Shown here in pieces: positions 635 through 60,660 of a DNA stretch of 64,000 bases. The position numbers and the translations under genes are program-made. The stretch's first letter is position 1, and every line of letters begins with the position of its first letter. The notes beneath the pieces were generated by a model. That model made no database searches. It saw nothing but the letters and a program-made list of their open reading frames with translations, and had not been told where the DNA came from. This stretch comes from Cymodocea nodosa (Eukaryota; Streptophyta; Magnoliopsida; Alismatales; Cymodoceaceae), in NCBI GenBank assembly GCA_036874045.1, contig CM072336.1:11002501-11066500 (forward strand), written 5' to 3'.

Positions 635-1033
635 AGTAAAGCACAATTAATATGTATAATTTATGAAGGCATAGATGTTTCAACAAAATCTTTTTTAGAA
701 TCTACTTATCAAAATGGATTTTTAAAACTGTGTAGTGAAGAAGCATGGGCATATTTAGAAAACTTTGCAAAAAGAACTGCACAGTGGGAAAACTCGGCTG
801 AAGCTATTACAGATAAAAGAATATTGCTAAGGGGAATGCATGAAATAGATTCAAGCACTATGCTTGAAGTTAAATTAACTGAATTAATAAAGAAAATAGA
901 AGAGTTATCATTAAATCAAAAGCTAGCAGAAAAGAATGCAAACATTAATGATTTAGATATTATTTATGCTAGAAACCAAAAAGATAACTTTCGAAATTCT
1001 TATAACCTTAACTCCACAAGGGTGTGTAAGTAG
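635..1033 (+). pseudogene. Gypsy-type gag fragment of element F1
   Basis: The open frame visible from 578 starts in LTR sequence. Only residues from 635 onward are gag. They match the F2 protein at 57203-56982, including the stretch SEEAWAYLENFAKRT, and resemble the mid-part of plant Ty3/gypsy Gag, the nucleocapsid precursor that packages element RNA. A hydrophilic part with KKIEELSLNQ (probable coiled coil) and the run DNFRNSYN follow, then a stop at 1031. The 5' half was cut off by the family B LTR. Compared with F2, about 0.5 kb of the gag 3' end is missing just after this stretch. No zinc knuckle, protease or RT follows; the next gene is an F-box gene 57 bp away. Clearly non-functional. 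Confidence 0.8.
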
Positions 1034-1089
1034 CTATGTTAATTTTGTCTCTATTAAATTTTTGTTTATGTTATACAGAATTACAATAG

Positions 1090-2212
1090 ATGGAATTGAT
1101 GAAATTACCACTAGATGCACTAAGGGAAGTACTGAGTAACTTGTCAGCTAAAGATTTGTGCAGATTGTGTTGTGTATCAAAGGAAATCAAAGACTGTGTC
1201 AAAGAAAAATATTTTCATAGACTACAAGCTGCAAAAATGACTAAGATTAGAGATGGATTTTTATGGAAGTCATTTAATCGTAGTTCAATCTGCTATGAAT
1301 ATCTGAATATGGAAGAAACTGCTAGAATTCCACCCAATACATTAGAAGGAATAAATCATATTGTGGGGATGGATGAAGGATTAATTATATACAGAATCAA
1401 ACTAAGGTATGCAATTCTGTTACCTGACATTTTGATTAGAAACCCTATCACAAGAGAAGAATGGAATATAGGAAGGCCTAATACATTTGAAGTACCAACT
1501 GAAAATTGTGGGTCAGCTTTAATATTTTTTGATAAAAATTTGACCATTCTTGAAAAATTATATTACTAGAGACCAACTAGAAATTGGGATGAAGATTTAT
1601 GCTTAAGTGTGTATAATTTTCTAAATAGATCTTGGACTGAAAATACTATGATATATCTAGGACAGAAAGCATTAATTAACAACATGCATGTCATACTTGA
1701 TGGATATATATATCTTGTCATAGATATATCAGTTGCATTTAGATCTGATTTATACATAGTAAGTAGAGATAGTTATGATGATGATTTTATAGAAATATTA
1801 CCTATATCGAGTGATATAGCTAAACCACCATCTGTAGAATATGATAAAATTCAATTAAGCATGTGGTATAATGAATATGTCTGATAAGATGGTGGGATGA
1901 ATTGAGGAAATTTCAAATATAGATTATGAAAGACCTAAATGAATGGAAGTGGGAAGAAGAATATATTGAAATAGATGTAGAAATAGAATAGTTACATTAT
2001 CTTGGAACATAAGAGGATCCCTTTCTACATTTCATTTCATTAACGGTAATACACTTATATTTAGTATTGATAACATACTGCAAGTTTACAAGCTAAAAAA
2101 GAAAGCAGATTGCATTAAAACAGAATTAATAACAAGAAGAATTATGCCTAAAAAGTTTGCATGGACTGACACGTTTATTCCATTTGTTACTACTTTTCAA
2201 TCATGTTCTTAA
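1090..2212 (+). pseudogene. F-box protein gene carried by element F1 (degenerate)
   Basis: The first 50 residues are a recognisable F-box: LPLDALREVLSNLSAKDLCR, then LCCVSKEIKD. The F-box binds SKP1 in SCF ubiquitin ligases. The remainder resembles an F-box-associated substrate domain: RNPITREEWN near residue 117, FLNRSWTENT near 175, MKDLNEWKWE about two thirds along, and a C-terminal part ending QSCS with the stop at 2210. Intact length would be roughly 375 residues, usual for the family. Breaks: an in-frame TAG at 1567-1569, a 16-bp deletion near 1877 relative to F2, and a further frame change near 1995-2003. F2 carries a homologue in the same position and orientation after gag, so the gene travels with the retroelement. 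I infer capture of a host gene. The family's target protein is unknown. Confidence 0.82.
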
Positions 2213-3228
2213 ATGATAATTCTATTTTTTTAATGTTGTGTGTATTTTGCATTTATTTTTAGAAAAAAAAAAGAAAAAGAAAAGAAAAAATTTTAGTTTT
2301 AGTTTTAGTTTTATTTTATAAGAAAAAAAGAAAAGAAAAAATAAAATATCAATCCAATTTGTTGGTATCTGTTCTAGGAAACTAACTGGCTTGCTTGTAA
2401 GCCACCAAAGGCATAGGAGCCTAGGTTCCACACAAGACACCAATTTAACAATTTATGTTTTTTATTTTGTTATATATATTTTGCTTTTATTTGTGAATGA
2501 AAAGTTTTTTAGAATCAAAAATCAGAAGATATGAAGGAGATACAAAAGGGCAAGGTATGTAATTGATTACTTATCCTGAATTTACATTTAAACTCAGTTT
2601 GTGGAGTTATTCATTAACTCAATGAATTAAGTTCGTTGAGTTAGGTGCTAAATCAATGAAATAATATTCATGCCTACTACAATTACTATATTTATTGTAA
2701 AATCTTTTACATTGAGGAAAATGCAAAATGTAGGTATGGGGGGAGGTAATTAAAGTAACAGCCATGTAATTTTGTTAATTAGAAGAATTAGAATGGTACT
2801 GCAAAAGTTCTATGGAAATTGAAAATTTTTTTTTATGAATTTGCTGTAACTATCCGATAATTGAAACTATAAAATTTGTAAAAACTATAACTACTTGAAT
2901 GTTATATAAGATGCTACAGAATTTTACTATTCATACAAATCTAGATATAGTATCTTATGTTTTTGCTGAATTTTACGAGTTTAATAGTTTCACGATTTTA
3001 AAAAGAAATCAGAATGCTTAACTGAAACTTAGTAAATTATCTAAAATCCTGAAAGAGCTGAAATGTTGATATTTGGATTAAATGAAATACATATGATCAA
3101 GGATACATTTAATTTGATTGATTAAACTTGTAGAATGATTTATGTGTAGATCTTATTAAACTACAAAAAAAGTATGAGCTTATTGATATGGATTCATATT
3201 TTTAGTAAATAATAGAAGCAAGACTATA
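2213..3228 (+). other. F1 noncoding region after the F-box gene, with a first polypurine tract
   Basis: No coding potential. It is colinear with F2 from 55135 down to about 54155. It holds a purine/pyrimidine-biased stretch (2260-2345) and, at 2733-2746, a GGTATGGGGGGAGG tract like the priming site for plus-strand DNA synthesis. A second such tract lies at 5948-5961 immediately before the LTR. The stretch stops at insertion H and resumes at 5138. Confidence 0.6.
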
Positions 3229-5137
3229 GAGACAAAATTTGTGCATTTTATTAGATATTATTGCATTATAGTTATGGACTTAATTGTGTTAAATATATGT
3301 TTTTGAATGAGATTACATGTCAACTGTATTTGAGGCTATTGCATGTCAAATGAGTTAAGTGTTGGAAAAATGCACAAATTTATCACTATTCTAGTTGCAT
3401 CACATCAAATAACCCACGTGTAGCATTATAGTTAGTATAGAATTGATTTCATGAAATATGCAACTAGTGAATTTTTTATTATTATTTCATGAAACATCAT
3501 GCACGTAACACATTTATTTTGACAACACCACCGCAAGAGTAAAGTTATCGTGGAGGAATTTCATTTAGCAACACACAACATCACTTCCATGCAAATGAAT
3601 TGTGAATTAAATTTCTCACACATGTCAATGTCGTCAATTGATAATTATTGCATGTATGTATATTTTTAGTACAAATTTAATGTTCCTTATGCATGCCACA
3701 CATTTATTGTATTAGTTATCAAGTTTCATTTAAAGTGTGACATTTAACATTATTTGTAAGTGGTTAGCAAAGGAAAAGTAAAGCATGGAAAAATGAGAGC
3801 CATTGATCTTCCTTGGGATCATCTAAAGCACTTTTGAGATTCTAAATCTAGATCTAGAATCTCACTATATATGGCCCAAGCCATTCTCGTTGGAGCCCCA
3901 TCTCCACTCACATCCAAGGCTGAAAGCTCCACATTCTTGCATCCTCATTTCTCTTCTTCATTCCATTCTTCTTCTCAAGGTAAGGGAGGCCAACTACATA
4001 GCTAGTGGTGAGCCAAGGGTCTTGGCGTCCTTCCTCCATTTTGAGTTCCGTGCTCCTCTTGCAATGAAGGGCACATCTAAGGCTTCATGGTGGAGTTGGA
4101 TGGCAGCATTGGGAGGAAACCTTGGTTCTACATTGTTGGATTGAGGAGGCTCTTGCAATGAAGGGCACGTCTAAGGCTTCATGGTGGAGTTGGATGGCAG
4201 CATTGGGAGGAAACCTTGGTGCTACATTGTTGGATTGAGGAGGCATCACGTGGACTATCCCTAGAAAGTGCTCCTTGCTCAAGGTTGGAGAAGGTTTGAA
4301 GAACGATGGCCTTTTCTACTCAATCCCAAAGGAGGTGCTCTTCAAGAGGGGAAAACACAAGTGTGACAGCCTTGTGGAATAGCCAAATGAGGGAAGCAAC
4401 ACTTCCAATGGTGCACGTTGGGCTGGAATTGGAATTCTCCTAAGGTATATGAGGGTTAGAGTGAGATCCCTATGCATATGTTTATGTTTGTGTGTGTGCT
4501 CATGTGCATAGGTATATGATTATAGATATGTGTATTTCGTGTGTTGTCTTGTGTTGTCATATATCTTGTTTGTGTGTTCTTGCATGATACATTAGGAGTA
4601 GGAGTAGCGGTAATTGCAGCATTTTATTGTTAGATTTTGATATAAAACAATGGTGGAAACTTGTGATTATGTGAATAAAATCTTGTGCATATGTGGTGTT
4701 TGTGTATATGCCTAACAATAGCTAACTTAGTATAGTTTTTAATTGGTTGTGAATGACTATTCCTTGCTGTCACTATGACCATACTCATGCGGTAGTTACA
4801 TATGAATTTAGTGGATGACGTTAAGTGTGAATGCATGCACACTCGTTGAAATGATGGAATGTAAATTTTAGATTATATTGATTGAGGTTGTATGTTTTAT
4901 ATACATATTCTCTTGGATTTTTAGGTTTCTGTTAATAGCCGTTCACTCTCTCCTTTAGTGGCTAAATTTCTGCAGCCAAACTTGTATTCATTCAGTATAT
5001 CATTAGATACAACATATTAAAATCCTTGTGGAGATGACCTGTACTTGCACTACTTAATACAATAGGCACTGTGCACTTGCGGAAAATTTATAAATGTAAA
5101 ATTTGCGATTGTTGTGTTAACAACAAATATCATTACA
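3229..5137 (+). mobile_element. Insertion H, probable gypsy LTR, inside F1
   Basis: F2 lacks this block at the matching place (near 54155), so it is an insertion into F1. It is flanked by a 9-bp direct repeat, AAGACTATA, at 3220-3228 and 5138-5146. Inside are a TATA-like CTATATATGG near 3863, a transcribed-looking segment rich in short direct repeats, and near 5020 the text AATCCTTGTGGAGATGACCTG. Text of that kind is typical just upstream of the 3' end of plant gypsy LTRs. A TG at 3240 and a CA at 5136 could be the true LTR ends, but then the flanks do not form a 5-bp target duplication. A Mutator-like element could explain 9-bp repeats, yet I see no terminal inverted repeat. Identity is left open. 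Confidence 0.5.
4056..4243. repeat. 94-bp tandem duplication, two copies
   Basis: Two nearly identical units with a 94-bp period (4056-4149 and 4150-4243). Each contains GCAATGAAGGGCAC and GCAGCATTGGGAGGAAACC. They lie inside insertion H, downstream of its TATA-like box. Confidence 0.85.
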
Positions 5138-5961
5138 AAGACTATATGAGATTTGTGTTTTATTGCATCTGTATTAATAAAATATGTATATATACTATAT
5201 TGAAAAGAAAAAGGAGGAAAAAAGAGAAAAACTTTGAGAGTTTATTGACTTGTTTGATCACGAGCCTTTTGTAATTGAATAGATAGGTATGTAAGGATTG
5301 TTGACCTAAAAAGGACTCTTTAAATCTGGCAACCTAAGATCCTAATCAGATCTGGGATTGTTGAATAAAAGCTCGATACATGGGTACACTAGAAAGCTCT
5401 TGTATGATTCAAGCATTTCAAATTAACTTTTAAAGTACAAATATGCATATACTGTTCTAAAAAGATAAAAGTGTTTTGTGAAATACAGATATCTTTTGAA
5501 TCGAGTATATTTTCTGTTATCTAAAATTGCTGAAGTATGAATCTAGAATAGACTTTTGAAGTTGTTTATCTAAGATACAATTCTTTATTCTACTTGTTTT
5601 AATCATATTGAATTGGATTGTGTTTTGATTCATATGTAGTTGAAATTTATTTTGGAAATCATATTGGAAAATTCAAGATGACAAATGCTGAAAAGAAGAA
5701 AAAAATGATAATATAATTAACACCTATGTGATGCTAATGTATTTTATATGTAATTTACATATGTTTTAAATATATTTGCAAGTTGTAGAGGAGAAAACAA
5801 TGTTAAAACAAATTACTGAAAAATACAGAATATCTATATAGTAATCTAAATTATGTATTCTAAAGAAGAACGAAGTGAAGAATTAATTCTAGACTTTAGA
5901 AAGACCAACTAGTTAGATCTTAGTTTGCTAAGTGACTAGCAAAATTTAAGTATGGGGGAAG
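5138..5961 (+). other. F1 3' noncoding region and main polypurine tract
   Basis: Continues F1 after insertion H and is colinear with F2 (about 54155-53336). It ends in AAGTATGGGGGAAG at 5948-5961, directly before a TG, the layout expected for the priming site and start of a 3' LTR. F2 has the same tract at 53349-53336. No RT, integrase or protease remnant is seen anywhere between the F-box gene and this point. Confidence 0.65.
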
Positions 5962-6972
5962 TGTTTAGAATGAAAAAGTGCATAATATTAAGGGTTAAAT
6001 GATGGTTAATTGCATAATATTTAGCTTATCATATAAGAATTAAGCCATTATGTTATAATTGCACTGTTATATGCTTTAATGAAAGAATCTACATAATTTC
6101 AGGGAATTAATGTTAATTTAGTATATTTTTGAACTGTCGGTAAATTGTAGGCTGTGAAATTCTTAAGTATCCGAATTTTCTATTATTTCAGAGAGTTATA
6201 TTGCATGTACCAGACAGTTATGTTTTTAATGATAGAAGAATATTTTATTATTTCCTAAAGTACATGTGTTGAAACCTTAATGCATGACTTATGTGGATTT
6301 TCAGTAAATTATCTGTTAACTATCTGAAATACATCTAGGCATCGGATAGTTAGGTTCGTAAGTGTTTGAAATATCTGAACTCATTAAGTTAGAATTATGC
6401 ACGTGTTGAATTTAAATGCTTTAGTATATCACGTGAGATACACATGTTTAACTCGTTAAGTTAGCATAACTGTACGCATTGAGTTACATGAATACACACT
6501 AAGGTAACATGTTATGTTAGCAGCTTATTTCTTTATTGCATGTGTTTTATAGTTAAATCAATGAAGTAAGTCCGTTGAGTTATCTGTAACTCCATGGACC
6601 TTTTATTTTCTAATATGCCACTATAGCGGTTACAGAAACAGGGCATTCGAAGGAAAACCATGATTGCATGTATCATGTAGGAATTAACTCGTGGAAGGAA
6701 GAAGAAATCACCATCGTTGATATGAATGAAGGAAATCCAACTGATCATCTAAGCAGAAGTAGTTACTACTGAAGAAATATAAAAGAAGAGGAGAAAAACG
6801 AAGAAAGTGTGGTTGGTAGTGTGTATAGAGGTGGAGGACCGCGCTAACTGTAGGTAGCATCAGAAGTTCATTGAAGCTCCACACCATCACCAACATCACC
6901 ATAATCACCAACCATCGGAGGTCTGTGAGGATACTTTTCTGATATTGGGTCGATTCCGAGCCAAACACGGTG
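5962..6972 (+). mobile_element. 3' LTR of F1 (3' end lost)
   Basis: Starts TGTTTAGAATGAAAAAGTG just after the polypurine tract and matches F2 from 53335 downward, apart from the E solo LTR in F2. It contains hairpin motifs (ATCGGATAGTTA near 6341; AAGTCCGTTGAGTTATCTGT near 6569), CACGTG at about 6401 and 6430, and a TATA-like GAAATATAAAAGAAG near 6773. Similarity to F2 stops at 6972; beyond it the two copies diverge, so the true LTR end is not placed. The intact LTR is at least 1 kb. Confidence 0.6.
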
Positions 6973-7011
6973 TGATTGGATTTTTAGGCGGCACCAGAGA
7001 ACTTATTTAGT

Positions 7012-7029
7012 TCCCCGGCAATGGCACCA
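7012..7029 (-). other. Gypsy primer-binding site, tRNA-Asp type (remnant G)
   Basis: On the minus strand this reads TGGTGCCATTGCCGGGGA. From memory it matches the complement of the plant tRNA-Asp 3' end at 16 of 18 positions, and the two changes are of the CG-to-TG/CA type expected from methylated-cytosine decay. The site marks the start of a minus-strand gypsy element whose 5' LTR would lie to the right. Confidence 0.65.
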
Positions 7030-7036
7030 AAAAACT

Positions 7037-7727
7037 TGTTAACTTCTGTTTGTAACTTAATTAATTTATCTTTATGCTTATCATTAATTCCTCTTTAGAA
7101 GTCAACAAACCATCTTTCACACAAATTAGATATTAATTCTAATTTGTAGTTTAACTACAAGTGTATAGTGTATATTGTATTTGTGTGCAAGTATAGGTCG
7201 ATCCCACAAAGAATTAAGGAAGAACTGTGTACAGTTCTGTTTTTAATAATAAAATTTATATCCTCAGTAAGCACTTCGTGGAGTTATAGCTAACTCAATG
7301 AACTAACCTCATGAAATTGAAGTAACTCAACGAAGTTGTCTATCTAGATTAATACTTCTATTTACAAAAGAATTCGGTCAACCATTGAGCGGTTCTACAG
7401 ATTGTAAATAACATCAATTAAGCTCTTTAATGCTAGTTAATATTAAATTTATCATTCAGCAACACTAACATTCAAATATTTCAAACAGTAACCATTAAAA
7501 TCTTTGAGTATCAGGAACAATTTCATTTCAATAATTGTAAAACTATTTTCTATTTTCTAAATTTAAACAAACATGAAACATTCCAAACACTGACAATGAT
7601 AACAATAATCACAATACAAAACAAACACTACAACACTCAAATACTAACTATAAACACAGATAAGTTGTTTTTGGTATTTTTGTTTTTATATGATCATGAA
7701 AATGGGCAAAAGGTGAAATGTAAAAGT
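7037..7727 (-). mobile_element. Remnant of a gypsy LTR (G), minus strand
   Basis: Adjacent to the tRNA-Asp-type primer site. On the minus strand it ends ...GTTAACA before the primer site and contains TTTGTGGGATCGACC, typical of the 3' part of Tat/Athila-like LTRs. Two AACTCAACGAAGTT-type motifs occur near 7270-7340. The start of this LTR is not resolved. The right part (7440-7727) is AT-rich sequence without a recognisable gene. Confidence 0.45.
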
Positions 7728-8530
7728 AATCTCTAGTAGGATTAAATGAGTGTTCAAGTTTAATTACTGCATTGTTCTCTTAATTTCAGTTTACATTCAT
7801 TTGATTTGTTGGGACCATACATAGGGCTTTCACAAGAGTGGTCGACACCTATGTATGGTATACTTGGCACATATGAATGTGAAGTGTTGATTCAAGGAGA
7901 AGAAGAGGAGTATAAGAATTTGGAAGTATATTGTGTTGAATTTCTTCTTAATGAAGAACCTCTCATTTACCTTAGTTGTTAATTTTAATTTCAGTAGTTA
8001 GCTGAATTTGTTATACCTTATATTGATCACATTTTGTCCAAATCAATCTCCAAAAAGAATTTCTAATGCAAGTAGTATAGTATAGTTTAGCTAGATTAGC
8101 AAATAGCATAGTTGCATGCATTTAGTATAAATTAGAATAGAGTAGTATAGTCTATTGAACCTTGTTGTTTTATTTTTCTTTCCTTAATATTGATGCATTG
8201 ATATCACTTCTGAAATCACGTGGAACTTGTGTGCATGTTATAATTGAATGAGTTGATAGATTTACAAGTAAATAAATTGATTCACATCACCATTTTCCAC
8301 TACACATTGCCTTGAAATTGCATGATTTGTGAGCTTGTGTTAACTTTGATTATTCTACATTCACATGTCATTAATTTACTAAAGTATACCTAAGAGCTTG
8401 AAGAACAAGTTGAGTAATAGTTGATTAAGTCATAAACACAATCCTTGTGGAAGAATGACCTGTATTTGCCATGTACACCAAAAGAGCTGTGCACTTGCAG
8501 TAAAGCTTGAGCTAAAAATATAGCTCAACA
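7728..8530 (+). mobile_element. Family A gypsy LTR fragment
   Basis: Matches, in inverse orientation, the solo LTR A2 at 25166-26779. Shared blocks include GTCGACACCTATGTATGGTA and AATCCTTGTGGAAGAATGACC, and the end ...ATATAGCTCAACA at 8530. The 5' half of the LTR is missing, since similarity begins near 7728. No target duplication can be shown because of the truncation. Confidence 0.7.
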
Positions 8531-22897: not shown

Positions 22898-23225
22898 TGT
22901 TGAGTATTATGTTTTGATAATGTATGCTAAATAAATGTAATCATATTTAATCATTTACTATTGTTTGTGAAAGTAAATTAAGAACATCAATTAATACAAA
23001 AAGTTTACTGATATAAATACTTATCTGTAATGGATTTGAAATTATTCTAAGTTAAATAACTAGTCATTAAGTTATACTAACTTTTCAATTAACTAAGCAT
23101 TTAGTTAACGTGTGTTTCTATTGTAAAGCATGATATGTTTTAAAAGTTATATTTCTGTAACATGTATAGTGCACGTTAAGACAACTCATTGAGTTAGTGC
23201 TTTGTTTGTAAAAAGGTCATGTGTG
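22898..23225 (+). mobile_element. Family B copia LTR, 5' fragment
   Basis: Starts TGTTGAGTATTATGTTTTGA and follows the B consensus for about 325 bp, up to GGTCATGTG. There a family E LTR begins, which probably inserted into it. The rest of this LTR copy is not found on the other side of the nested block. Confidence 0.75.
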
Positions 23226-24524
23226 TGAAAGGACCTCTAGATTTTGATAATGCAAAAATCAATGTGAGGAATATTCTTTTGTATTTCACAGATAGCAGTT
23301 AAAGTCAGTCACAAATAGATCATTCAAAGTTGACAAATGAAATTAGAAGGATCAGACAGTTATCAGTCTAAGTATCCGGAAGTAGTAGATTTTTGGAAGG
23401 TTAAAAGCCTAAATATTTGAAAGACCACTTAAAGGTAGCAAACAAGCTCTTTAGAAAGTTACAAGGTTAATTATCCGAAAATAAGGTCTTCAGATTGTTA
23501 GTTTTAAGGTATGAATTCTTTAGAGAGTTAGGACAACTAACTATCCAAAAATACAAGCAAATCGAAAAGTTATCTAGAATAACTATCCGAACAGTTAAGT
23601 CAGAAGAATATGCATGTGTAGAAATTAAATTAGTAGAAAGATGCTTAAAGGATTTTTCAGTAAGTTAAGAAAGCTAACTATCTGAAAAATCAAGAAGTTT
23701 CGGAAGATTGTAGATTTAACTATCTGAAACTTAAGTTATTTAAATACACACGTGCAGAATCCAAAGAATAGTAGTTGGAAGCTTAGAAGAAGAATCGGGA
23801 GGTTACTATAGTTAAATATTTGAAAGTTGAAAAGTTTTGGTAAGCTAACAATTATAACCATCCGAACTTAAGACACTTCACGTGTATGACTTAAATCTCA
23901 CATGACAAAAGGACTTAAGTGAATTTTCAGTGAGTTACGATCATCCTTCGGAAAGTTACACAACTAACTATCCAAAAGTTTAAGAAAATTGGAAGGTTAT
24001 CTTGAAACACCTTCCTAAACGATAACTTACCATATATGGACCTGCAATTTCAATAAGTACAGTACAATACATCTGTTAGAAATGAATATGATCATTATGC
24101 TGAATGTTATAAATATAAACAATAAACAAGAGAGTTAAATAGTTTTTTGAACATACAAATCTATACACCAAGCTCCATATATATAGTAGAACATCTTCAA
24201 GATCAAATCTTCAATAAAGACAAACTCAAGTCTAGAGCTCTCCACGCAAATAAACTCTGATTTCTTCAAGCCCATGGTTACTGAAGTATACCAACTAAAA
24301 ACTTTAGAGATAGGTTGGTTGGAGCTATGACTAGAAAGCTTAGTTCGATTGGTTGGTTCTTGCTTTGACCTTAAAGCAAGTGTTTGTAAGTTTTGAAAGA
24401 TTAGTGAAGCTCAAGTATCCCTTGGGGGTGGACTAGCCGTTAATGGTGAACCACCTAAAATCCCTATGTGCTTTATTTTCCTTTTACCTTATGTTTGCAC
24501 TTAGAAAAATCGTTTCATGCTTAT
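23226..24524 (+). mobile_element. Family E copia LTR, 3'-truncated
   Basis: Starts TGAAAGGACCTCTAGATTTT and matches the solo E LTR at 51659-53295 in inverse orientation, as far as GGTGAACCACCTAAAAT near 24450. It has a dense array of ATCCGAA/TTCGGA-type hairpin motifs at 23340-24000. The last part is missing: a family A LTR starts at 24525, and the sequence on its far side (39409 on) does not match the E 3' end. Confidence 0.7.
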
Positions 24525-25165
24525 TATTGAGCTATATTTTTAGCTCAAACTTTACTACAAGTGCATGGCAAATACAGGTCATTCTTCTGCAAGGATTGTG
24601 TTTATGACTTAATCAATTATTACTCAACTTTTCTCTTTAAGCTCTTAGTTATACTTCAGTAAATTAATGAGATGCTAATGTAGAATCATCAAAAATAACA
24701 AGCTCACAAATCATGTAGTTTCAAGGCAATGTGTAGTGGAAAATGGTGATGTGAATCAATTTTTTACTTGTAAATCTATCAAGCCATTCAAGTATGAAAT
24801 CCACACCAATTCCACGTGAGTTTAGATGCAAGATATATGCAAATAAAACAAGAGAAAAAAAATAGAATATGAAGAAACAATACACTACACTACTCTATTC
24901 TAATTTATACTAAGTGCATGCAACTATGCTATTTGCCAATCTAGCTAAAACTATACTACACTACTTGCATTAGAAATTCTTTTTGGGGTTGATTTGGATA
25001 AAAGGTGATCAGTATAAGAGATAATAAACTCAATTAACTACTAAAATTAAAATTAACAACTAGAGATAAATGATAGGTTCTTCATTCAAATGAACATCAA
25101 CACTTATTTTCTTCTTCTTTCAATTCACACCTACTCAAATGCGCCAAGCCACCATTGATGGGTGT

Positions 25166-42347: not shown

Positions 42348-43166
42348 ATGGTAGAGGGTTAGCATGTACACCGATCTCCACTCTTTGATGGAAATAATTA
42401 TGGCTTTTGGAAAAATAAAATGACTAATTTTTTAAAATCTATGGATGTGAAGGTATGGAGAGCAGTGGTTCATGGAATACAACTTCCAAATGTTCTTGAA
42501 GACATGTGAAATGATAAAGATGAATATGGACCAACTGTTGATATTACTAAATATAGAGGAATGATAGGTTCTCTTCTTTATTTAAATGCTTCTAGACTTG
42601 ATATCATGTTCAGTGTTTATGCCTGTGCTCGTATTCAAGCTCAACCAAAAGAATCTCACCTATCTACAGTTAAAAGGATAATGAAATACCTACAAGGAAC
42701 TTCAAATTTTGGTTTAATGTATTTCAAAGATAGCAGTTTGGATCTAATTAGATACAATGATGCTGATTATGTTGGATGCAAATCTGATAGAAAGAGTACT
42801 AGTAGAACTTGCCAACTATTTGGCAGTTCATTAATTTCAAGGTTTAGTAAGAAGCAGAATTGTGTTGCCTTATCAACTACTAAAGCTGAATATGTTGCTG
42901 CTGCCCTATGTTGTGCACAAATTCTTTGGATGAAACAAATTATGAAAGATTATGGAATTAAATATGGAAAAACTCCTATTAATTGTGATAGTAATAGCAC
43001 AATAAGTTTGTCAAAGAACCCTGTGTTGCACTCTCGGGCAAAACATATTGAGATAAGACACCATTTTTTGAGAGATAATGTTATGAAGGATAACATTGAG
43101 CTGAATTTTGTTTCTACTCATGAGCAGTTGGTAGATATTTTCACAAAGCCTCTTGAAGAAAAATAG
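42348..43166 (+). pseudogene. C1 gag start fused in frame to RT end/RNase H
   Basis: The first about 54 codons are a SIRE-type Gag N terminus (SPLFDGNNYGFWKNKM, MDVKVWRAVVHG). Directly afterwards, in the same frame, comes the C-terminal pol: DKDEYGPTVD, YRGMIGSLLYLNASRLDIMF, then RNase H (ADYVGCKSDRKST, CDSNSTISL) to TKPLEEK. Everything between, several kilobases in D1, is deleted. Stops occur at codon 5 and at the junction. The RNase H motif that should read STTEAEY is STTKAEY, so the catalytic Glu is lost as well. It is homologous to D1 pol at 34000-33350. It shows how C1 arose by an internal deletion. Confidence 0.87.
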
Positions 43167-50273: not shown

Positions 50274-50520
50274 ATGGCTACTGGAAATGGTAATTTTTCT
50301 TTATATGAAGGCCAAAATCTTAATCATCCTCCTTTATTTGATGAAATACATTTTGAATATTGGAAATATAGGATGATAGTCTTTCTTCAAAGTATAGATC
50401 ACAAGTTGTGGTTCATGATTTTTAAACCATATACTTTGTTAACTACAACTTATAATACTTGGACAATTATTGAAAAGGAAAATGAAACTTTGAATGCTAA
50501 AGGCTTAAATATCTTACAAT
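50274..50520 (+). pseudogene. Copia gag N-terminal fragment (family B element)
   Basis: Starts MATGNGNFSLYEGQNLNHPP about 200 bp after the LTR. It matches the SIRE-type Gag start of D1: HPPLFDEIHFEYWKYRM, VFLQSIDHKLW, and NAKGLNIL, the last shared with D1 NVKGLNIL. The homology breaks after NIL at about 50515, where sequence next to F2 begins. The rest of the element is not seen, so F2 either inserted here or was joined by a rearrangement. Confidence 0.8.
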
Positions 50521-51658
50521 CCTACCTCCTCTCCCTATAGAATCACAAATCCAGAATTGTAAGATGATCTCCTCTTCAACATATTGGCATCAACCTGATA
50601 CCAAGGCTAGAAGCTTTACGATCTCTTGAGATATGAGTCGGTGCTTGGTGAAAATGACTTCCCTTCCCGCGACGCGATCACTCCTCATAGTAGTTGTCAA
50701 GCACCGTGTTTGGCTCGGAATCGACCCGACATTAGGAAAGTATCCTCATAGACCTCTGATGGTTGGTGATTTTGGTGGTGGTGTGGAACTTCAAGGAACT
50801 TCTGATGCTGCCTATAGTTAGCGCGGTCCTCCACCTCTGCACACACACTTTCTTTGTCTTTCTCCTCTTCTTTTATATTTCTTTCTATAGTAACTACTTC
50901 TACTTAGATGATTGGTTGGATTTCCTTCATTCATATCAACGATGTTGATTTCTTCTTCATTCCACAAGTAAATTCTTACATGATATGTGTGATCGTGGTT
51001 TTCCTTCGAATGTCCTGTTTCTGCAATTGTTATAATGGCATATTAGAAAATAAATGGTCCTTGGAGTTATAGATAACTCAACGGACTTACTTCGTTGATT
51101 TAACTATAAAACACGTGTAATAAAGAAATAAGCTGCTAACATAATGCGTTACCTTAGTGTGCATTCATGTAACTCAACGCGTATAGTTATGCTAACTTAA
51201 CGAGTTAAACATGTGCATCTCACGTGATAGAATAAAGCATTTAAATTCAACACATGCATAAATCTAACTTAATGAGTTTAGATATTTCGAATACTTACAA
51301 ACCTTAACTATCCGATGCCTAGATGCATTTCGAATAGTTAGCAAATAACTTAATGAAAATACACTTAAGTCATGTATTGAAGTTTCAACACATGTAATCC
51401 AAGAATTAATAAAATACTCTTTTATTGTTAAAAACATAACTGTCTAGTACATGCAATATAACTCTCTAAAATACAGAAAATTCAGATACTTAAGAATTAA
51501 AAACCTGCAATTTACCAATAGTTCAAAAATGTATTAAATTAACATTAATTCCTTGAAATTATGTAGATTCCTTCATTAAAGTATATAATAGTGCAATTAT
51601 AACATAATGGCTTAATTCTTTTATGATAAGCTAAATATTATGCAATTAACCATCATTT

Positions 51659-53295
51659 TGTTAGGACCTTAAGGCTTACCAGAGGGGGGGTGAATGGTAA
51701 TAATTCGTTTCTTAACCTTTTAGAAGTAGTTTAATGTAAAGAGATAGCAAGCACACAATAAAAGAATTCACATAGAGATTTTAGGTGGTTTACCACTAAC
51801 GGCTAGTCCACCCCCAAGCGATACTTGGGCTTCACTAAACTCTTGCAAACTTACAATCACTTGCTTTAAGGTTTAAGCAAGAACCAACCAACCATTCACT
51901 TGAGCTTCCTTGTCAAAGCTTCAATCAATCCTTTCTCTAAAGTTTTGATCTGTGTACTTCAGTAAACACTAGCTTTTAAGCAATAGGATTGAGTGCATGA
52001 TGAGCTTCTGAAATTTAGTCTGTAAACGTTGAAGATGATTTGATCTATAAAGCTTTTCTTCTGTTGAGCTTGGTGTAAGTATGTATATGAGCAAAAGCTA
52101 TCTAAATCCGTTGTCTGTATCTTGTATATATACCAAACATGTGTGACAATCATATTTTCTTCCAACGGATGTATTCTACTGTACTTGATTAGACTTCAGT
52201 CCTAAATACGGTAAGTTATCGTTTAGAAAGTCATTTCAAGATGTCCTTCCGATTTTCTTAACCTTTCGAATAGTTAGTTGTGTAACTCTCCAAAGAATAT
52301 CTACAACTCACTGAAAGATCACTTAAACCTTTCTGCCATGTAGGATTCCAGAATATATACTACGAGCTGTCATTCAATCGGATACTTATAACTGTAACTT
52401 ACCGAACCGTTATTTAACTGTCGGATAGTTGGCTACAGTAACCCTCCGTTAACTTTCCGATTGCTTTAATTCAGCACGTGCATAAAAGACTAACTTAAGT
52501 TTCGGATGGTTATCCTAGTAACTCACCGAAATGCTTCACGATTTTAGATAGTTATCTTTCTAACTCTCCGAAAACTTATTTGAGCTTCTTTCTAGAATTC
52601 TACAGGTGGAAAAATCAATGACTTAAGTTTCAGATAATTAAATTGTAACTCACCGAAACTCTCTTGAATGTTTGGATAGTTATCTTTCTAACTCTCCGAA
52701 ATCTTATATGAACTTCTATTTGGAATTCTGCACGTGGGGAATTTAGTGACTTAAGTTTCGGATAGTTAAATTGTAACTCACTGAAACTCTCTTCAAGGTT
52801 TCGAATAGTTATCTAACTCTCCTATTTTTCCTTTTAAGCTTTTGACTGTAGGCTTCTCCATTCTGCACATGCATAATAAGATGACTTAAGTTCTGGAAAG
52901 TTATACCTGTAACTCTCCGAAAAACTCGAATAGTTATCTAACTCTCCAAAAAGAAAACTCGGATAGTTATCTAACTTTCTGAAAAGTCCTTTAAGCTTCG
53001 GTTCTATATTTCTGCACGTGATTAATTGAATGACTTAACTTTCGGATAGTTATACCTGTAACTCTCTGAAAAGTCTTTTAAGCTTCCGTATAGTTAACTC
53101 CTTAACTATCCGATCATTCAATCCTTTCTTAACTGTCCGATTTTCTGTAGCAGCACATTCTGAGATTTACTGCATCCTATTTGCTACTTCGATTTGTCTG
53201 CCTTCTAATCTTTTTGCTGTATTGACTAAACCTGATAAATACAATGCAAAACCTTAGATTGATTTTTGCATTATCAAAATCTAGAGGTCCTTTCA
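51659..53295 (-). mobile_element. Solo LTR of copia family E
   Basis: 1637 bp, sense start TGAAAGGACCTCTAGATTTT at 53295, sense end AAGGTCCTAACA at 51659. The target duplication CATTT is at 51654-51658 and 53296-53300. F1 supplies the empty site: around 5996 it reads straight through GGGTTAAATGATGG. Contains hairpin-motif arrays at 52200-53150. No internal region. Confidence 0.93.
52493..52876. repeat. 128-bp imperfect tandem repeat, three units, in the E LTR
   Basis: ACTTAAGTTTC starts at 52493, 52621 and 52749, a 128-bp period. Each unit holds two inverted pairs of the form TTCGGATAGTTA ... TAACTCACCGAA or ...TAACTCTCCGAA. CACGTG or a near match lies near the unit boundaries, with exact copies near 52475 and 52733. 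Confidence 0.8.
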
Positions 53296-53335
53296 CATTT
53301 AACCCTTAATATTATGCACTTTTTCATTCTAAACA

Positions 53336-55135: not shown

Positions 55136-56274
55136 TTAAGAACATGATTGAAAAGTACTAACAAATGGAATAAACATGTCAGTCTAAGCAAACTTTTTAG
55201 GCATAATTCTTCTTGCTATTAATTCTATTTTAATGCAATCCATTTTCCTTTTTAACTTATAAACTTACAGTATGTTATCAATACTAAATATAAGTGTATT
55301 ACCATTAATAAATTGAAATGCAGAAAGGGATCCTCTTCTGTTCCAAAATAATGTAGCTATTTCTATTTATACATCTATTTCAATATATTCCTCTTCCCAC
55401 TTCCATTCATTTAGGTCTTTCATAATCCATATTTGAAATTTCATCAATTCATCCCACCATCTTATCAGACATAAAGTACGATCATCATATTCATTATACC
55501 ACATTCTTAATTGAATTTTATCATATTCTGCAGATGGTGGTTTAGCTATATCACTCGGTATAGGTAATATTTCTATAAAGTCATCCTCATAACTATCTAT
55601 GCTTACTATGTATAAATCAGATCTAAATGCAACTGATATATTTGTGACTAGATATATATATCCATCAAGTATGACATGTATGATGTTAATTAATGCTTTC
55701 TGTCCTAGATATATTATAGTATTTTCAGTCCAAGATCTATTTAGAAAATCATACACACTTAAGTATAAATCCTCATCCCAATTTCCAGTTGGTCTCTAGT
55801 AATATAATTTTTCAAGAATGGTCGAATTTTTATCAGAAAATGTTAAAGCTGACCCACAATTTTCAATTGGTACTTCAAATCTATTAGGTCTTCCTATATT
55901 CCATTCTTCTCTAGTGATAGAATTTCTAATCAAAATATCAGGTAACAGAATTGCATACCTTGGTTTGGTTCTATAGATAATTAATCCTTCATCTATCCCA
56001 TAATATGATCTATTCCTTCTAGTGTATCGAGTGGAATTCTAGCATTTTCTTCCATATTCAGATATTCATAGCTAATTGAACTACAATTAAATGACTTCCA
56101 TAAAAATGCATCTCTAATCTTAGTCATTTTTGTAGCTTGTAGTCCATGAAAATATTTTTCTCTAACATAGTCTTTAATTTCCTTGGATACACAACACAAT
56201 TTGCATAGATCTTTAGCTAACAGGTTACTCAGTACTTCCCTCAGTGCATCTAGTGGTAATTTCATCAATTCCAT
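55136..56274 (-). pseudogene. F-box protein gene carried by element F2 (degenerate)
   Basis: Minus-strand homologue of the F1 gene at 1090-2212, roughly nine in ten bases alike. F-box: LPLDALREVLSNLLAKDLCK, LCCVSKEIKDYV. A one-base deletion near 55995 breaks the frame at EGIDHIMG; it returns to the original frame later. It shares with F1 the in-frame TAG after KLYY (55798-55796). It keeps the segment TLCLIRWWDELMKFQIWIM that F1 lost through its 16-bp deletion, and shows FINGNTLIFSIDNILQ and a C terminus ending QSCS. A TAA replaces a Glu codon near 55372. F-box proteins choose substrates for SCF ubiquitin ligases. The gene lies 217 bp after the gag stop, where a gypsy element should have protease and RT. 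Confidence 0.82.
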
Positions 56275-56491: not shown

Positions 56492-57744
56492 TCATTCAAC
56501 TTCCCTCTCATAGGAGGTATCAATTTCATTAACAGTTCTGTTGACAGGGTTAGGTACTACTTGCATTAGCAATCCTCTAGTAGGTCTAACTTCTATTGAT
56601 TCCTTCTATCTAGGGGGCATATTTCTATTCATATTTTGATTTTGAATGGCAGTATTTCCAAATACAAGATCTAGACGATTATTTAATTATTGAATTATCT
56701 TTTCTAATTTCTTTATTCTAGATCCTTGTTCAATTAATGTTTCATAACTTATATTCTTGTCATTTATATTTTCTCCTCCTTGGAAATTTTTGTTTCTCCA
56801 AGATAGATTCGGGTGATTTCTTTAATTAGGGTTATAAGAATTTCCAAAGTTATCTTTCTGGTTTCTAGCATAAATAATATCTAAGTCATTAACATTTGCA
56901 TTCTTTTCTGCTAGTTTGATTTAATGATAACTCTTCTATTTTCTTTGTTAATTCAGTTAATTTAACTTCAAGCATAGTGCTTTAATCTATTTCATGCATT
57001 CCCCATGGTAATATTCTTTTATCTGTAATAGCTTTAGTCGAGTTTTCCCACTGTGTAGTTCTTTTTGCAAAGTTTTCTAAATATGCCCATGCTTCTTCAC
57101 TACACAGTTTTAAAAATCTATTCTGACAAGTAGATTCTAATAAAGATTTCCTTGAAACATCTATACCTTCATAAATTATACCTATTAATTGTGCTTTATT
57201 CATTGCATGATGTGGACATTGAGTTAATAAATCTTTAAATCTTTCAAAATATTTTCAAAATGATTCTCCTTGTTTTTGGCGACACATTAATATTTCCTTT
57301 TTTCTTTCTAATCGTTTGATGTGTTGGATAATATTTTTCTAGAAAAACAAAGCAAAATTCTATTCATGTAGAAATTTAATCAAGCGATAGAGTATATAAC
57401 TATCTCTTAGTTGTGTCTTTTAAAGCAAAAAGGATATATCTAAGTTTAATAGCATCAATACTCATGTTCGACATTTTCATCATTTGACAAACTTCGTTAA
57501 ATTCTCTAAGGAAATAATAGGCATCCTCTCTTTCTAATCCATGAAAATGTGGCAATTGACTAATATAATTAGATTTAAATTCAAACTTATCTCCCTCAAA
57601 GTTTGGCAATCGAATACATGAAGGTTCATCAACTAATTTAGGATACAGAATTTCCCCTAATGGTTTTTCTACTAGAGCAGCCATATCTTCATTCTCTTTT
57701 AAAGAAAGGTTAGCTACACCCCTAAGGATTTCGTTTAAGTCCAA
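56492..57744 (-). pseudogene. Gypsy-type gag of element F2
   Basis: Begins MDLNEILRGVANLSLKENED at 57744. SQLPHFHGLEREDAYYFLRE is the usual start of the plant Ty3/gypsy (Tat/Athila-like) Gag domain. After a stop cluster it continues GESFxKYFERFKDLL...CPHH, then SEEAWAYLENFAKRT. The distal part shows a HPNLSWRNK-like block followed by IKKLEKIIQ and VRPTRGL. The stop is at 56494. At least two frameshifts and many stops. The sequence upstream of the B LTR in F1 would have been the same. No CCHC knuckle or protease motif is seen before the F-box gene. Confidence 0.8.
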
Positions 57745-58807
57745 TTCAGAAAATATTTCAGTACAGCTCTATGTTGAATAATCTTGTGTAGGTGTTCTTA
57801 CAAATTGTTTAGTACTAGGAGAACGAACCTATGCGCTCATAAACTCTTAACATAAAGTAAAATAGCAGAAGTTTGATTACATACCAGTCTGAAACTTTGT
57901 TTTTTGTAAATAGTTGTTGACGAATGAAGTTGAATCAGCTGCTTCTCCTTCCAATTCTCCAACGAATTTTCTTTTCTTTCAAAAGTGCTGGTAACTCATA
58001 AATACATGCTATTCTCTATTTATAATGCATGTCCATAAGGCAAATGAATCTCATTGCAAGAACGTGTTTTGTAACGTGTAGTGTGGTTCCTATTTTTATG
58101 GATACGTGTTCTACTTCTAATTTTAAATTTCAGTAATCGTTAAACCCATGAAGTTTCATTCGTGGCTAAAAGAATAACTATTTAGCTTAATCCACGAACT
58201 AACCTCGTTGAGTTATAGTTAACTCAACAGACTAGCTTCGGTTACTATTTACTAACTCCACAGACTAACTTCGTTGAGTTACAGTTAACTCAACAGAGTG
58301 ACCTTATATTCTATTATTGACCTCGTGGAGTTAAGGTTAACTCAACGGACTTACTTCGTTGAGTTAACACTTAGCAAATTTCTCTAAAACTTACTCCTCG
58401 TATTAACTTCTATATATTTTTTTTTGCGTTTTGTCAACTTAAATAAAGTTAAATACATGTCATTAATGCAATGCTATAATTTAAAACTCATTTCAATTTG
58501 AACATTATATGCATGTTTAACTTACAGTTCATTTCCTGTTGGGTAAAATTTACATTTTACTTTGCAGCATGTAGGTATTTTCAGGCACTAACCAATTATC
58601 GTGCATTTAATCATATCATTCATAAAATTTATAAATCTTTTAAACAGTCTTGCATATTGTTCAAACAGTTATATAATATTCAATACAGTTCATCAATTCT
58701 ATCATTTATTCTTAAACACAAACATCTAAAATTCAAACATTCATTTATATAAATATTTACAGTACATTTTGTCAGATATTTTTCAATACAAGCAGATGAA
58801 CGATAAA
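57745..58807 (-). other. F2 spacer between upstream ORF and gag, with motif array
   Basis: No gene. 58180-58370 is an array of inverted motifs (see separate entry). The rest is AT-rich; a plus-strand frame at 58498-58752 has no recognisable content. Confidence 0.55.
58190..58370. repeat. Array of GTTGAGTTA/TAACTCAAC inverted motifs in F2
   Basis: Three to four units of the form CTTCGTTGAGTTACAGTTAACTCAAC, with variants in which CTCGTGGAGTTA replaces the left half. Each unit can fold on itself. Related motifs are in B LTRs (for example 49230-49350), in the F LTR and in remnant G. Confidence 0.75.
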
Positions 58808-60660
58808 TTAAACTTTCTTCCTAAGTTCATGTACTTCCTTCTGGAGTTTTTCTAATTGATTTATCCTCTCTACAGCTCCTATAATGTCTCTAGAAGGTCT
58901 AGATATCTCAATAGCAGCATAATTTCTATATTCTTTCACTAAAATGGTTCTTGATCTTAACCTTTTGGATGCCCATTTCGTGAAATCAATATTATCCACC
59001 ATCAGTAGTGGAATCAAATCTCCATAAAATAATTTCTTCTTTACTGTTCTCAGCTTGGAGATAAATACTTTGTACCAATTAACTTGAATTCTGTTTACAA
59101 CTGCATACGTGGCCCACTTGACAAATTGACTAAGTTCAATGTCGTGGCCTTGTCTTTGATAAACAGTTTTTACCAATATGGTTGCAACCATGTGTGCCTT
59201 TCCATTTAAGTACTTCAGTCTGTTCAGTAATGGCACACTAGGGTCGATGGCTATGCACTGTTTAATTTCCTGTTCAGCACATTCCACTGTAGTTGTTTCT
59301 TCCAGAATTTCAATTCCTTCATTTCTCAATTCGAAAATAATGTGGAGAAGCTTTGGTGTTATTTGTACATCAGCTTGCTCCACATTGGAAATTAATCCAC
59401 TTTCTCCTTCTCTCAAATTTGCATAGAAACAGGGTACTAGATTTTCGTATACTACATGCCCTTTCTATTGAGAAATAAATTGTAGTAGACCTTGGAACTC
59501 AAATAAATCCTTAATTTCTTGCATACCGTCCTAGTTTACTGGTCTACTGTATATAACATCATAACCCCAAATTTCTTGATATTCATTATATGCTTCCTGA
59601 CTCCAAAAGTGTACTTCATTCAAAACTATTGCTATAGTCGGGTTAGGAATTTGAATTTGTTGCTCTAGAGGGGTTTGTTCTTGAATTTCCTCTTCCATGT
59701 GCTGAACTTGAATTTGTTGAAAATGCTTGGCAGATTCCTTCATTTTTGCTTTTGCTTTTGTTTGTGGTGGAGAGCTAGTAGAACTCTCCACTCTTCTTTC
59801 TTGCACCCTCTCTAAAATTTGTTGAAGAGTTTCTCCCTCTTCAATGGAATCTGTCGAGATATTTCCTTTTTGTTCCATATCCTCTTGTTCAGTTTCTTCT
59901 CTTTCTTCTTCCTCCTGACTACCAATCTACATTGTCATTATTCTTTTTGATTCTGTGGCAGATTGGGATGGAGTCACGGGCAAATCAGCCTTTGCCCTAA
60001 TTTATGTTCTTTCTATTTGTATAGGCTGTAGATTAGTTTCAACCTATTTTTCTTCTTCTCTTTGCTCTTGCTGTTGCTGCTTCTGCTGCTTCTGCTCCTA
60101 CTCAGAATTGGATAGCAGGTTTACAAAAATTGGCTCTACAAGCCCTACTGATATTTGCATCTCAGATTTAATCTCTTCTTTATGTTCATGCACTATCTAT
60201 TATCCTTTCCTTCTTTTAATTAGCTGTGCCTGGTCTTCCTCTTCCTCTTCTCAGATTAAATCTACAAAAATGGACTCTATAGGCCCTCGAGCCACAGGTA
60301 CTGGCTCTTCTTGTTTTACCTTTTCTATAACTATTAGTCTCGAAGGACCAGCTTCCATTTCTTTAACAGTAAGTATGGTAGTGGCTTCTTGATGTTGTTC
60401 AACTTTAACTTTGTATTGGGCCTTCAACTTTTCTACAACCCTCCTTTTTGTGAAGTGCATCATACACCAAATGTGCTTTAGCTATTGCCAAATCTTCTAG
60501 TTCTCCTTGGTTTTTCCCAACTCGAACCAGTTCTTCAAATTCTCTTAATTCTTCTTCAGTGGAAGGCCGCATAACTACCACCCTTTCTAGTGGTTTAGGT
60601 GGTGGAACTGAAGGTCCGGGCTATTGTTCCTCTTGTTCTTCAATTGCATATTCTTCATTT
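58808..60660 (-). pseudogene. F2 ORF upstream of gag, plant-transposon-protein-like
   Basis: From 60463 to 58808 one frame is followed through about eight stops; a further N-terminal part (60660-60465) is in another frame. The N-terminal half is very rich in Glu and Gln (probable coiled coil). The conserved domain follows: VHFWSQEAYNEYQEIWGYDV, IYSRPVN, DLFEFQGLL, CFYANL, YLNGKAHMVATIL, RIQVNWYKVF and KKLFYGDLI, ending in a leucine-zipper-like tail (INQLEKLQKEVHELRKKV). Homologous to extra ORFs of copia elements D1 and C1. Tat/Ogre gypsy elements are known to carry an additional ORF before gag, which fits this place. Function unknown. Confidence 0.72.

What the first reader, a model, noticed from the sequence alone, without database searches (positions are those of the whole stretch)
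635..6972. Gypsy-like retroelement family carrying an F-box gene in place of pol (copy F1)
Gag sequence is followed within 60 bp by an F-box gene in the same orientation, then noncoding DNA, a polypurine tract and an LTR. A second copy (F2, 50702-60660, opposite strand) has the same order with more of the 5' part. Two diverged copies with the same gene order argue that the F-box gene was mobilised as part of the element, not adjoined by chance. No RT, integrase or protease is left between gag and LTR in either copy. An E3-ligase adaptor moved by a nonautonomous gypsy element would be a notable case of gene transduction.
Basis: partly seen in the sequence, partly recalled or inferred. Interest (0 to 1): 0.88.

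Follow-up and report, generated by a model that had tools for sequence, protein, structure and literature searches.

The report
Retrotransposon with F-box and displaced capsid
A jumping-gene family present in well over a thousand copies in this plant-like genome carries, besides its copying enzymes, a host-type F-box gene kept under selection, and it has its capsid gene placed behind the enzyme genes, an arrangement our limited paper searches did not turn up.

Summary
In detail: F1 and F2 have capsid-gag, F-box, polypurine tract and LTR in that order. The reading 'nonautonomous, F-box in place of pol' is wrong for the family. F1 and F2 are broken copies of a ~17.5 kb Athila-like Ty3/gypsy element: LTR, tRNA-Asp-like PBS, ORF A (CCHC knuckle, protease, RT, RNase H, integrase; no capsid), ORF1, spacer with TATA box, capsid-gag (no knuckle), F-box, PPT, LTR. 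Five of six loci picked only by integrase-ORF1 carry capsid-gag and F-box where expected; 40 of 40 scored hits run from LTR end into ORF A with no room for a capsid; 36 of 40 run unbroken from ORF1 into capsid. 32-mers with up to 3 mismatches count 3862 ORF A, 2409 capsid and 1874 F-box starts, reversed controls 0. F-box dN/dS between deep subfamilies is 0.21-0.33, gag 0.19-0.28. So gag is split, capsid and F-box lie 3' of pol, and the F-box is a lasting part. Mechanism (inferred): capsid and F-box come from a downstream mRNA; the F-box protein directs an SCF ligase against a host factor, perhaps in silencing. No TSD, donor, transcript or protein evidence.

The parts
637..1011 (+). F1: 3' part of capsid-gag (CA ORF), 5' end cut off by another repeat
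   Evidence: 93.6% to F2 57198-56826; 92.0% to the gag part of locus c6
1090..2212 (+). F1: F-box gene (378 aa in intact copies; here a stop at 1567-1569 and indels)
   Evidence: (Pfam F-box 2.8e-11)
2734..2746 (+). F1: internal polypurine tract (GTATGGGGGGAGG)
   Evidence: read from sequence; same motif in L006 and L007
3233..5139 (.). F1: 1.9 kb insertion absent from F2, gactata on both sides
5949..5961 (+). F1: 3' polypurine tract
5962..6972 (+). F1: LTR, first half only (full LTR about 2.1 kb)
6981..7725 (-). inverted LTR 3' part with PBS-like TGGTGCCATTGCCGGGGAA beside F1
   Evidence: PBS-like letters read
58811..60632 (-). F2: ORF1 (open pieces 59534-59926 and 58811-59464), weak Transposase_32 (PF20167) similarity
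   Evidence: E 0.0057, below cut-off; collinear upstream of gag and F-box in c6 and c19
57841..58810 (-). F2: spacer with TATA box at 58024-58016 (TATAAATAG)
   Evidence: in 6 of 6 aligned copies, one as TATATATAT
56492..57840 (-). F2: capsid-gag ORF (broken), no CCHC knuckle seen
   Evidence: Retrotrans_gag 1e-4, just below cut-off; 3.1e-14 in locus c19
55136..56274 (-). F2: F-box gene (broken)
   Evidence: 91.6% to the L025 gene
53336..53348 (-). F2: 3' polypurine tract
50497..53335 (-). F2: LTR (incomplete) with nested solo-LTR-like insertion 51658-53296

Best explanation
F1 and F2 are decayed, incomplete copies of an Athila-like Ty3/gypsy element of about 17.5 kb. SHOWN: gag is split. The 5' ORF begins at a CCHC knuckle and goes on to protease, RT, RNase H and integrase; the capsid part is a separate ORF lying 3' of integrase and ORF1, and an F-box gene follows it before the PPT and LTR. 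The order is shared by many loci, and the F-box gene has evolved under purifying selection inside the element lineage, as gag has. INFERRED: the LTR-driven full-length RNA serves as genome and as message for the knuckle-Pol protein; a second RNA, from the TATA-bearing spacer and/or by splicing, makes capsid and F-box protein, which would set the capsid to Pol ratio by promoter or splice choice. The F-box protein acts as an SCF substrate adaptor that removes a host factor hostile to the element, most plausibly one in RNA silencing or DNA methylation, as polerovirus P0 does to AGO1.
For: Order: C19 read from LTR to LTR, C6 from protease to LTR. The six best integrase-ORF1 hits after C19 (40 scored of 5555 candidates): 5 of 6 carry capsid-gag and F-box at the expected place. 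Upstream stretches of 4 of those 6 were fetched: 4 of 4 run LTR-PBS-ORF A-protease without capsid. LTR end-PBS-protease stretch: 40 of 40 scored hits (5421 candidates), 38 over nearly all of it. ORF1 end-spacer-capsid stretch: 36 of 40 scored hits (5376 candidates) span it at unchanged length; the other 4 lack most or all of the ORF1 end. ORF A to integrase 3700-3753 bp in 8 pairs, mirrored control 0. Capsid to F-box 1546-1578 bp in 12 pairs among 56 capsid and 100 F-box exact hits, mirrored control 0. Genome counts 1874, 3862, 2409, reversed controls 0. LTR pair of C19: K2P 0.066, 1225 sites. F-box: 11 of 109 scored hits without stop, the query's own locus included; dN/dS 0.33, 0.21, 0.22 to L001, L002, L008, gag 0.19-0.28 to L002/L008; median 0.31 over 55 pairs; 8 intact ORFs favour free omega over omega 1 (MG: lnL -3396.2 against -3442.2; MGK: -3270.6 against -3298.9, best of three kappa values). 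F-box CDS against 3' flank in copies not chosen by F-box: 0.044 (5 copies) against 0.149 (4 copies) substitutions per site. TATA in 6 of 6 copies.
Against: No transcript, SCF complex or target is shown. FBA_1 matches only 3 of 18 rows, below cut-off, plus L070 at E 0.026; L071 has none at E 0.1. No usable fold (pLDDT 38.0 and 32.5). ORF A starts (3862) outnumber capsid (2409) and F-box starts (1874): pattern conservation may explain it, or pol-bearing copies without capsid and F-box exist. One of six loci (L053) lacks both at the expected place. At locus c5 capsid-gag follows the PBS directly; I read it as a deletion because the CA start region is missing. No TSD was found, and the C19 3' LTR is followed by an integrase piece of another copy, not by clean flank. 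L002 and L008 are almost identical to each other (dS 0.019), so they are one comparison, and F-box dS to them (1.05-1.11) is twice gag dS (0.49-0.56): the two genes may not share all of their history. Gag to L003 gives 0.62 and 0.79, to L010 up to 1.11. The gag-F-box intergenic stretch is nearly as conserved as the CDS (0.065 substitutions per site, no indels, 5 copies). The site-class test gave 0.58-1.02. Methyl-C decay was not modelled.
Confidence: 0.6

Rival explanations
1. Nonautonomous element: capsid-gag and F-box with LTRs, no pol, moved in trans.
For: F1, F2 and locus c5 show no pol between gag and LTR; c5 has LTR-PBS-capsid directly. Pol-less Athila families with gag and env under purifying selection are reported (PMC2410132, passages).
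Against: Pol lies upstream in the same unit at C6 and C19 and capsid-F-box lies downstream of integrase-ORF1 in 5 of 6 loci; 36 of 40 scored hits run unbroken from ORF1 end to capsid. c5 lacks the CA start region.
Confidence: 0.08
2. Two elements fused: a pol element that lacked or lost capsid and a capsid-F-box element recombined once, and the fusion then spread. The F-box came with the second partner.
For: The spacer before capsid-gag has its own TATA and a 5' UTR-like stretch. Recombination between distant Athila families is documented (PMC2410132, passages). F-box and gag dS differ.
Against: No PBS-like site (up to 4 substitutions) in the spacers of F2, c2 and c14 and only a 91-bp LTR-like match in the F2 spacer. 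This concerns origin and does not contradict the present order.
Confidence: 0.35
3. The F-box gene is a passenger without benefit to the element, seen intact only because some copies are young.
For: 98 of 109 scored hits have stops; some classes and pairs give dN/dS near or above 0.6.
Against: dN/dS 0.21-0.33 at dS 0.5-1.1, intact ORFs at 77-90% aa identity, fewer substitutions and indels in the CDS than in the 3' flank.
Confidence: 0.08
4. The F-box protein regulates the element itself (capsid or Pol turnover, copy-number control) and does not attack host silencing.
For: It is encoded right behind capsid, possibly on the same RNA.
Against: No direct evidence either way.
Confidence: 0.3

Closest known systems
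Athila group (Athila, Calypso, Diaspora), Ty3/gypsy OTA superclade
   Same: LTR, tRNA-Asp-like PBS a few bases after the LTR, CCHC, protease, RT, RNase H, integrase, extra ORF between pol and 3' LTR. Diaspora's PBS starts 5 bp after the LTR and pairs with tRNA-Asp (PMC1142308, passages).
   Different: In Diaspora gag core, Zn finger, protease, RT and integrase form one ORF; here the capsid part is detached and lies 3' of integrase and ORF1, followed by an F-box gene.
Phalaenopsis Gypsy elements with an AlkB-type RNA demethylase ORF
   Same: Giant plant gypsy lineage that fixed one host-type enzyme gene (PMC9289625; abstract and the section on the domain screen read).
   Different: The domain is 2-ODD, and Gag and Pol form a single ORF. 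That screen of 121 angiosperm genomes reports 15 uncommon domains; F-box does not occur in its main text; its supplementary chart was not seen.
Retand and other elements with additional ORFs between pol and 3' LTR
   Same: Long pol-3' LTR region with extra ORFs (PMC11963269 part 1 of 5 and PMC7264820 part 1 of 3 read, plus term finds).
   Different: Those are env-like or antisense ORFs; the term F-box occurs in neither main text.
Transduced or retroduplicated host genes (maize Bs1; an F-box 'LTR-gene' in Thlaspi arvense)
   Same: Host gene inside or carried by an LTR element (PMC7264820; PMC8764390, passages).
   Different: Transductions are said to sit in one or a few copies, and the Thlaspi case is named as one gene; here there are about 1900 F-box starts with deep subfamilies.
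Polerovirus P0
   Same: An F-box protein encoded by a parasite genome; P0 builds an SCF ligase that degrades AGO1 (PMC11371168, passages).
   Different: No sequence relation tested; the target here is unknown.

Membership tests
Ty3/gypsy LTR retrotransposon | Protease-RT-RNase H-integrase order with gypsy-type domains | tested here: met
   Pfam RVT_1, RT_RNaseH, Integrase_H2C2, rve in order in c6 and c19; protease only weak (E 0.001 and 0.014, below cut-off)
Ty3/gypsy LTR retrotransposon | LTR pair with PBS and PPT | tested here: met
   C19: LTRs at both ends 93.8% over 1232 bp, PBS after the 5' LTR, PPT before the 3' LTR
Ty3/gypsy LTR retrotransposon | Short target site duplication | tested here: inconclusive
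   No match at C18:3873278 (L067/L068); the C5 locus is a tandem array sharing LTRs; C3 and C19 sites are nested or rearranged
Athila group | tRNA-Asp-type PBS | tested here: met
   TGGCATCGTTGCCGGGGAA and variants (up to 4 substitutions allowed) in 5 of 5 loci; the host tRNA itself was not examined (PMC1142308)
Athila group | No archaeal RNase H (distinguishes from Tat, PMC6317226, passages) | tested here: inconclusive
   No such domain in the pol pieces scanned; pieces from two decayed copies only
Athila group | Capsid, CCHC, protease and pol contiguous in that order | tested here: not met
   Capsid-gag lies 3' of integrase and ORF1
Athila group | RT falls in the Athila clade | not tested
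   No reference RT set at hand
Nonautonomous TR-GAG/LARD-type element (names recalled) | No pol in the family | tested here: not met
F-box SCF adaptor | F-box domain | tested here: met
   Pfam F-box best E 2.2e-12; 12 of 18 rows match, the 18 including pieces without the N-terminus
F-box SCF adaptor | FBA substrate domain | tested here: inconclusive
   FBA_1 in 3 of 18 rows, best E 0.028; L070 0.026, L071 none; all below cut-off
F-box SCF adaptor | Binds SKP1/ASK and cullin | not testable with these tools
   Needs experiment
P0-like silencing suppressor | Degrades ARGONAUTE | not testable with these tools
   Needs experiment

The most novel reading that the evidence does not exclude
A plant retrotransposon lineage that has split gag in two, expresses capsid from an internal promoter at the 3' end apart from a knuckle-Pol polyprotein, and encodes beside the capsid its own SCF adaptor that disarms host silencing: a retroelement with a dedicated, long-conserved ubiquitin-ligase counter-defence.
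Probability: 0.3. Interest if true: 0.93.

Novelty: new variant of a known kind. Interest (0 to 1): 0.8.

Why it matters
Gag before pol, with capsid and nucleocapsid joined, is the usual order of LTR elements. A high-copy family with capsid detached and placed 3' of integrase would show that this order can be changed and would offer a test of how the capsid to Pol ratio is set. An F-box gene kept under selection inside a retrotransposon offers a testable plant case of element-encoded counter-defence through ubiquitin. It also warns annotators: 9 of the 10 F-box hits that I read (of 150 scored) belong to the element family, so F-box gene counts in such genomes may be inflated.

Tried and rejected
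Considered and rejected: F-box in place of pol; one segmental duplication; chance adjacency; LTR-PBS-capsid as the main form (1 of 7 loci read, c5).

Led nowhere: protein database search with the F-box ORF, none of 1112 candidates at E 0.001, and with ORF A, 2 unnamed hits among 1001 candidates, best E 5.4e-14; PDB, nothing better than E 0.52; two structure models unusable, so no fold search was run; TSD search; host donor: the 109 scored protein hits are all close element-type genes, and the one ordinary F-box gene read (L005) matches over residues 6-211 at 21.6%, E 0.46. ORF A knuckle: no Pfam zf-CCHC match; the CX2CX4HX4C motif was read by eye, complete in 2 of 6 copies (L062, L069), the other four with one or more changed residues. 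A splice reading for the F-box start (AG before ATG in 24 of 30, donor-like in 27 of 30) is suggestive only. The site-class test gave omega 0.72 (singletons), 1.02, 0.66 and 0.58 (6 or more copies), on copies chosen by similarity: weak.

Papers: searches, judged from their listings (some show only part of the matches), turned up no F-box gene fixed in an LTR retrotransposon family and no capsid moved 3' of pol; the library holds open-licence papers only. PMC12440569: passages, conventional order. PMC8764390: passages, one F-box LTR-gene.
Full report
What is in the window. F1 (635-6972, +) and F2 (about 50497-60632, -) are collinear copies, 88-94% identical over shared blocks. Both contain gag sequence (F1 only its 3' part), an F-box gene, a long non-coding stretch with two polypurine tracts, and the start of an LTR. 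F1 starts inside gag and its LTR breaks at 6972; F2 reaches further 5', through a spacer into ORF1, before a copia element. Both F-box genes are broken.

How many copies. A search of the source genome (374.6 Mb, 28 contigs; the window is C2:11002501-11066500) with 635-2300 scored 40 of 5370 candidates; all 40 match the F-box side, and 33 of 40 (F1 included) have the gag hit upstream in order. An F-box ORF from one of these (378 aa, L025) scored 109 of 7041 candidates, all nearly full length, at 86-91% identity apart from itself; 11 of 109, itself included, have no stop. A 32-base F-box start pattern with up to 3 mismatches occurs 1874 times, its reversed control 0; the same test gives 3862 for the ORF A start and 2409 for the capsid start, controls 0. 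These counts depend on how well each pattern is conserved and do not give a ratio of genes.

Where pol is. Reading loci on C6 and C19 outwards shows RT, RNase H and integrase upstream of ORF1, then spacer, gag and F-box, all on one strand. C6 is rearranged upstream of the protease. At C19 the order is complete: 5' LTR (its first half interrupted by another insertion), PBS at L052:7686, ORF A, protease, RT, RNase H, integrase (Pfam), ORF1, spacer, capsid-gag (Retrotrans_gag E 3.1e-14), F-box, PPT, 3' LTR. From PBS to 3' LTR is about 13.3 kb and the LTR about 2.1 kb. To avoid choosing loci by the F-box, I took the six best integrase-ORF1 hits after C19 (40 scored of 5555 candidates) and read 2 kb where the F-box should lie: 5 of 6 have the end of capsid-gag and the F-box there, one (L053) has neither. 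For four of the six I read the 5' side: 4 of 4 run from LTR through PBS into ORF A and protease. With that stretch as query, 40 of 40 scored hits (5421 candidates) match, 38 over nearly the whole 1.7 kb. With ORF1 end-spacer-capsid of C6 as query, 36 of 40 scored hits (5376 candidates) span it at unchanged length, so no LTR lies between; four lack most or all of the ORF1 end. Five of these hits have an F-box hit or 98 about 2.9 kb further on, noticed by eye. Spacings repeat: ORF A to integrase 3700-3753 bp in 8 pairs; capsid start to F-box 1546-1578 bp in 12 pairs among 56 capsid and 100 F-box exact hits; mirrored control windows give 0.

Split gag. ORF A opens with MAYAYAQRF..., then a CX2CX4HX4C knuckle, a linker and protease; no capsid homology was seen between PBS and knuckle. 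The knuckle was identified by eye, complete in 2 of 6 copies; Pfam does not report it. The capsid ORF has the Retrotrans_gag domain and no knuckle in the pieces read. So capsid and nucleocapsid-type sequence are encoded at opposite ends. In the Athila relative Diaspora, gag core, Zn finger, protease, RT and integrase are one ORF with a tRNA-Asp PBS 5 bp after the LTR (PMC1142308, passages). The PBS here is of the same type. PMC6317226 (passages) separates Tat from Athila by an archaeal RNase H; none was seen in the pieces scanned, which leans to Athila; no RT tree was made. ORF1 lies where Athila elements have an env-like ORF; its similarity to PF20167 is weak (E 0.0057) and not seen in other copies.

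Selection on the F-box gene. I read ten of the 150 scored Pfam F-box hits: the eight best (L001-L008) and two picked for long open frames (L070, L071). Nine belong to this family (61-92% aa over the matched parts) and one is an ordinary F-box gene. Five of the nine have capsid-gag in the short flank held. Pairwise dN/dS (Nei-Gojobori, stops skipped) to L025 is 0.33 (L001), 0.21 (L002) and 0.22 (L008) for F-box, and 0.22/0.28 (L002) and 0.19/0.27 (L008) for two gag pieces; L002 and L008 are nearly the same sequence. Nearer relatives are noisier: L003 gives 0.45 for F-box and 0.62/0.79 for gag, L010 up to 1.11 for one gag piece. Among 11 copies (55 pairs) the F-box median is 0.31, range 0.21-0.78. 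Eight intact ORFs at 77-90% aa identity fit a free omega better than omega 1 (lnL -3396.2 against -3442.2 under MG; -3270.6 against -3298.9 under MGK, only three kappa values tried; the omega estimates were not printed). In 30 copies chosen by similarity the CDS has 0.066 substitutions per site and 0.75 indels per kb against 0.168 and 12.9 in the 3' flank; in the copies not chosen by F-box 0.044 and 1.09 (5 copies) against 0.149 and 6.9 (4 copies), while the gag-F-box intergenic stretch has 0.065 and no indel, so it too seems constrained or too short to tell. Of 64 in-frame stops counted in 30 copies, 39 replace tryptophan TGG, as expected from decay of methylated cytosines. Against a simple story, F-box dS to L002/L008 is about twice gag dS.

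Age. The C19 LTR pair differs by K2P 0.0655 over 1225 sites: about 2.5 My at 1.3e-8 per site per year, 4.7 My at 7e-9 (both rates recalled). No target duplication was found: the loci tested are nested, tandem or recombined.

Expression. The spacer before capsid has a TATA box kept in 6 of 6 aligned copies, a 5' UTR-like stretch and the capsid start codon. An AG sits directly before the F-box ATG in 24 of 30 copies and a donor-like GT further up in 27 of 30. I infer a second, 3' RNA for capsid and F-box; no transcript data were available.

Mechanism. The protein has an F-box and a C-terminal half with a sub-threshold FBA_1 match in some copies. I consider an SCF adaptor role likely. The target is unknown; silencing is my first guess, by analogy with P0, which assembles an SCF ligase to degrade AGO1 (PMC11371168, passages). 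Self-regulation of capsid or Pol is a live rival.

Known or new. Eight searches of the open library, judged from listings, turned up no F-box gene fixed in an LTR retrotransposon family and no element with capsid 3' of pol. A single F-box LTR-gene is named in Thlaspi arvense (PMC8764390, passages). A screen of 121 angiosperm genomes for extra domains in LTR elements does not mention F-box in its main text (PMC9289625), nor do PMC7264820 and PMC11963269. Absence from this library is not proof of novelty.

Noticed in passing
C2:8752576-9714503 of the source genome: Eleven of the 109 scored F-box hits lie here on one strand, ten with a single TAA as only stop, 59-200 kb apart: probably a duplicated array.
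   Followed up: no
L041 (c5), L064/L069 (C5:3282400-3285500), L040 (c2), L050 (c6): Tandem or rearranged copies in which one LTR is followed by another copy's PBS side or internal sequence.
   Followed up: partly
window 51658-53296: Solo-LTR-like insertion (TG...CA, aaatg on both sides) inside the F2 LTR; a relative lies at 23224-24470.
   Followed up: partly
window 33325-37135, 42561-43166, 61398-63993: Copia-type pol ORFs; the last belongs to the element that abuts the 5' side of F2 (copia by eye).
   Followed up: no
window 7730-8530 and 24561-25965: Inverted repeat pair, 95.8% over 801 bp, with a second block at 86%.
   Followed up: no
window 4056-4244: Tandem repeat of 95 bp inside the F1 insertion.
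   Followed up: no
L051:7378-9564: Inverted capsid-gag and spacer ending directly at an LTR start, without F-box: a nested LTR or a copy lacking the F-box.
   Followed up: no
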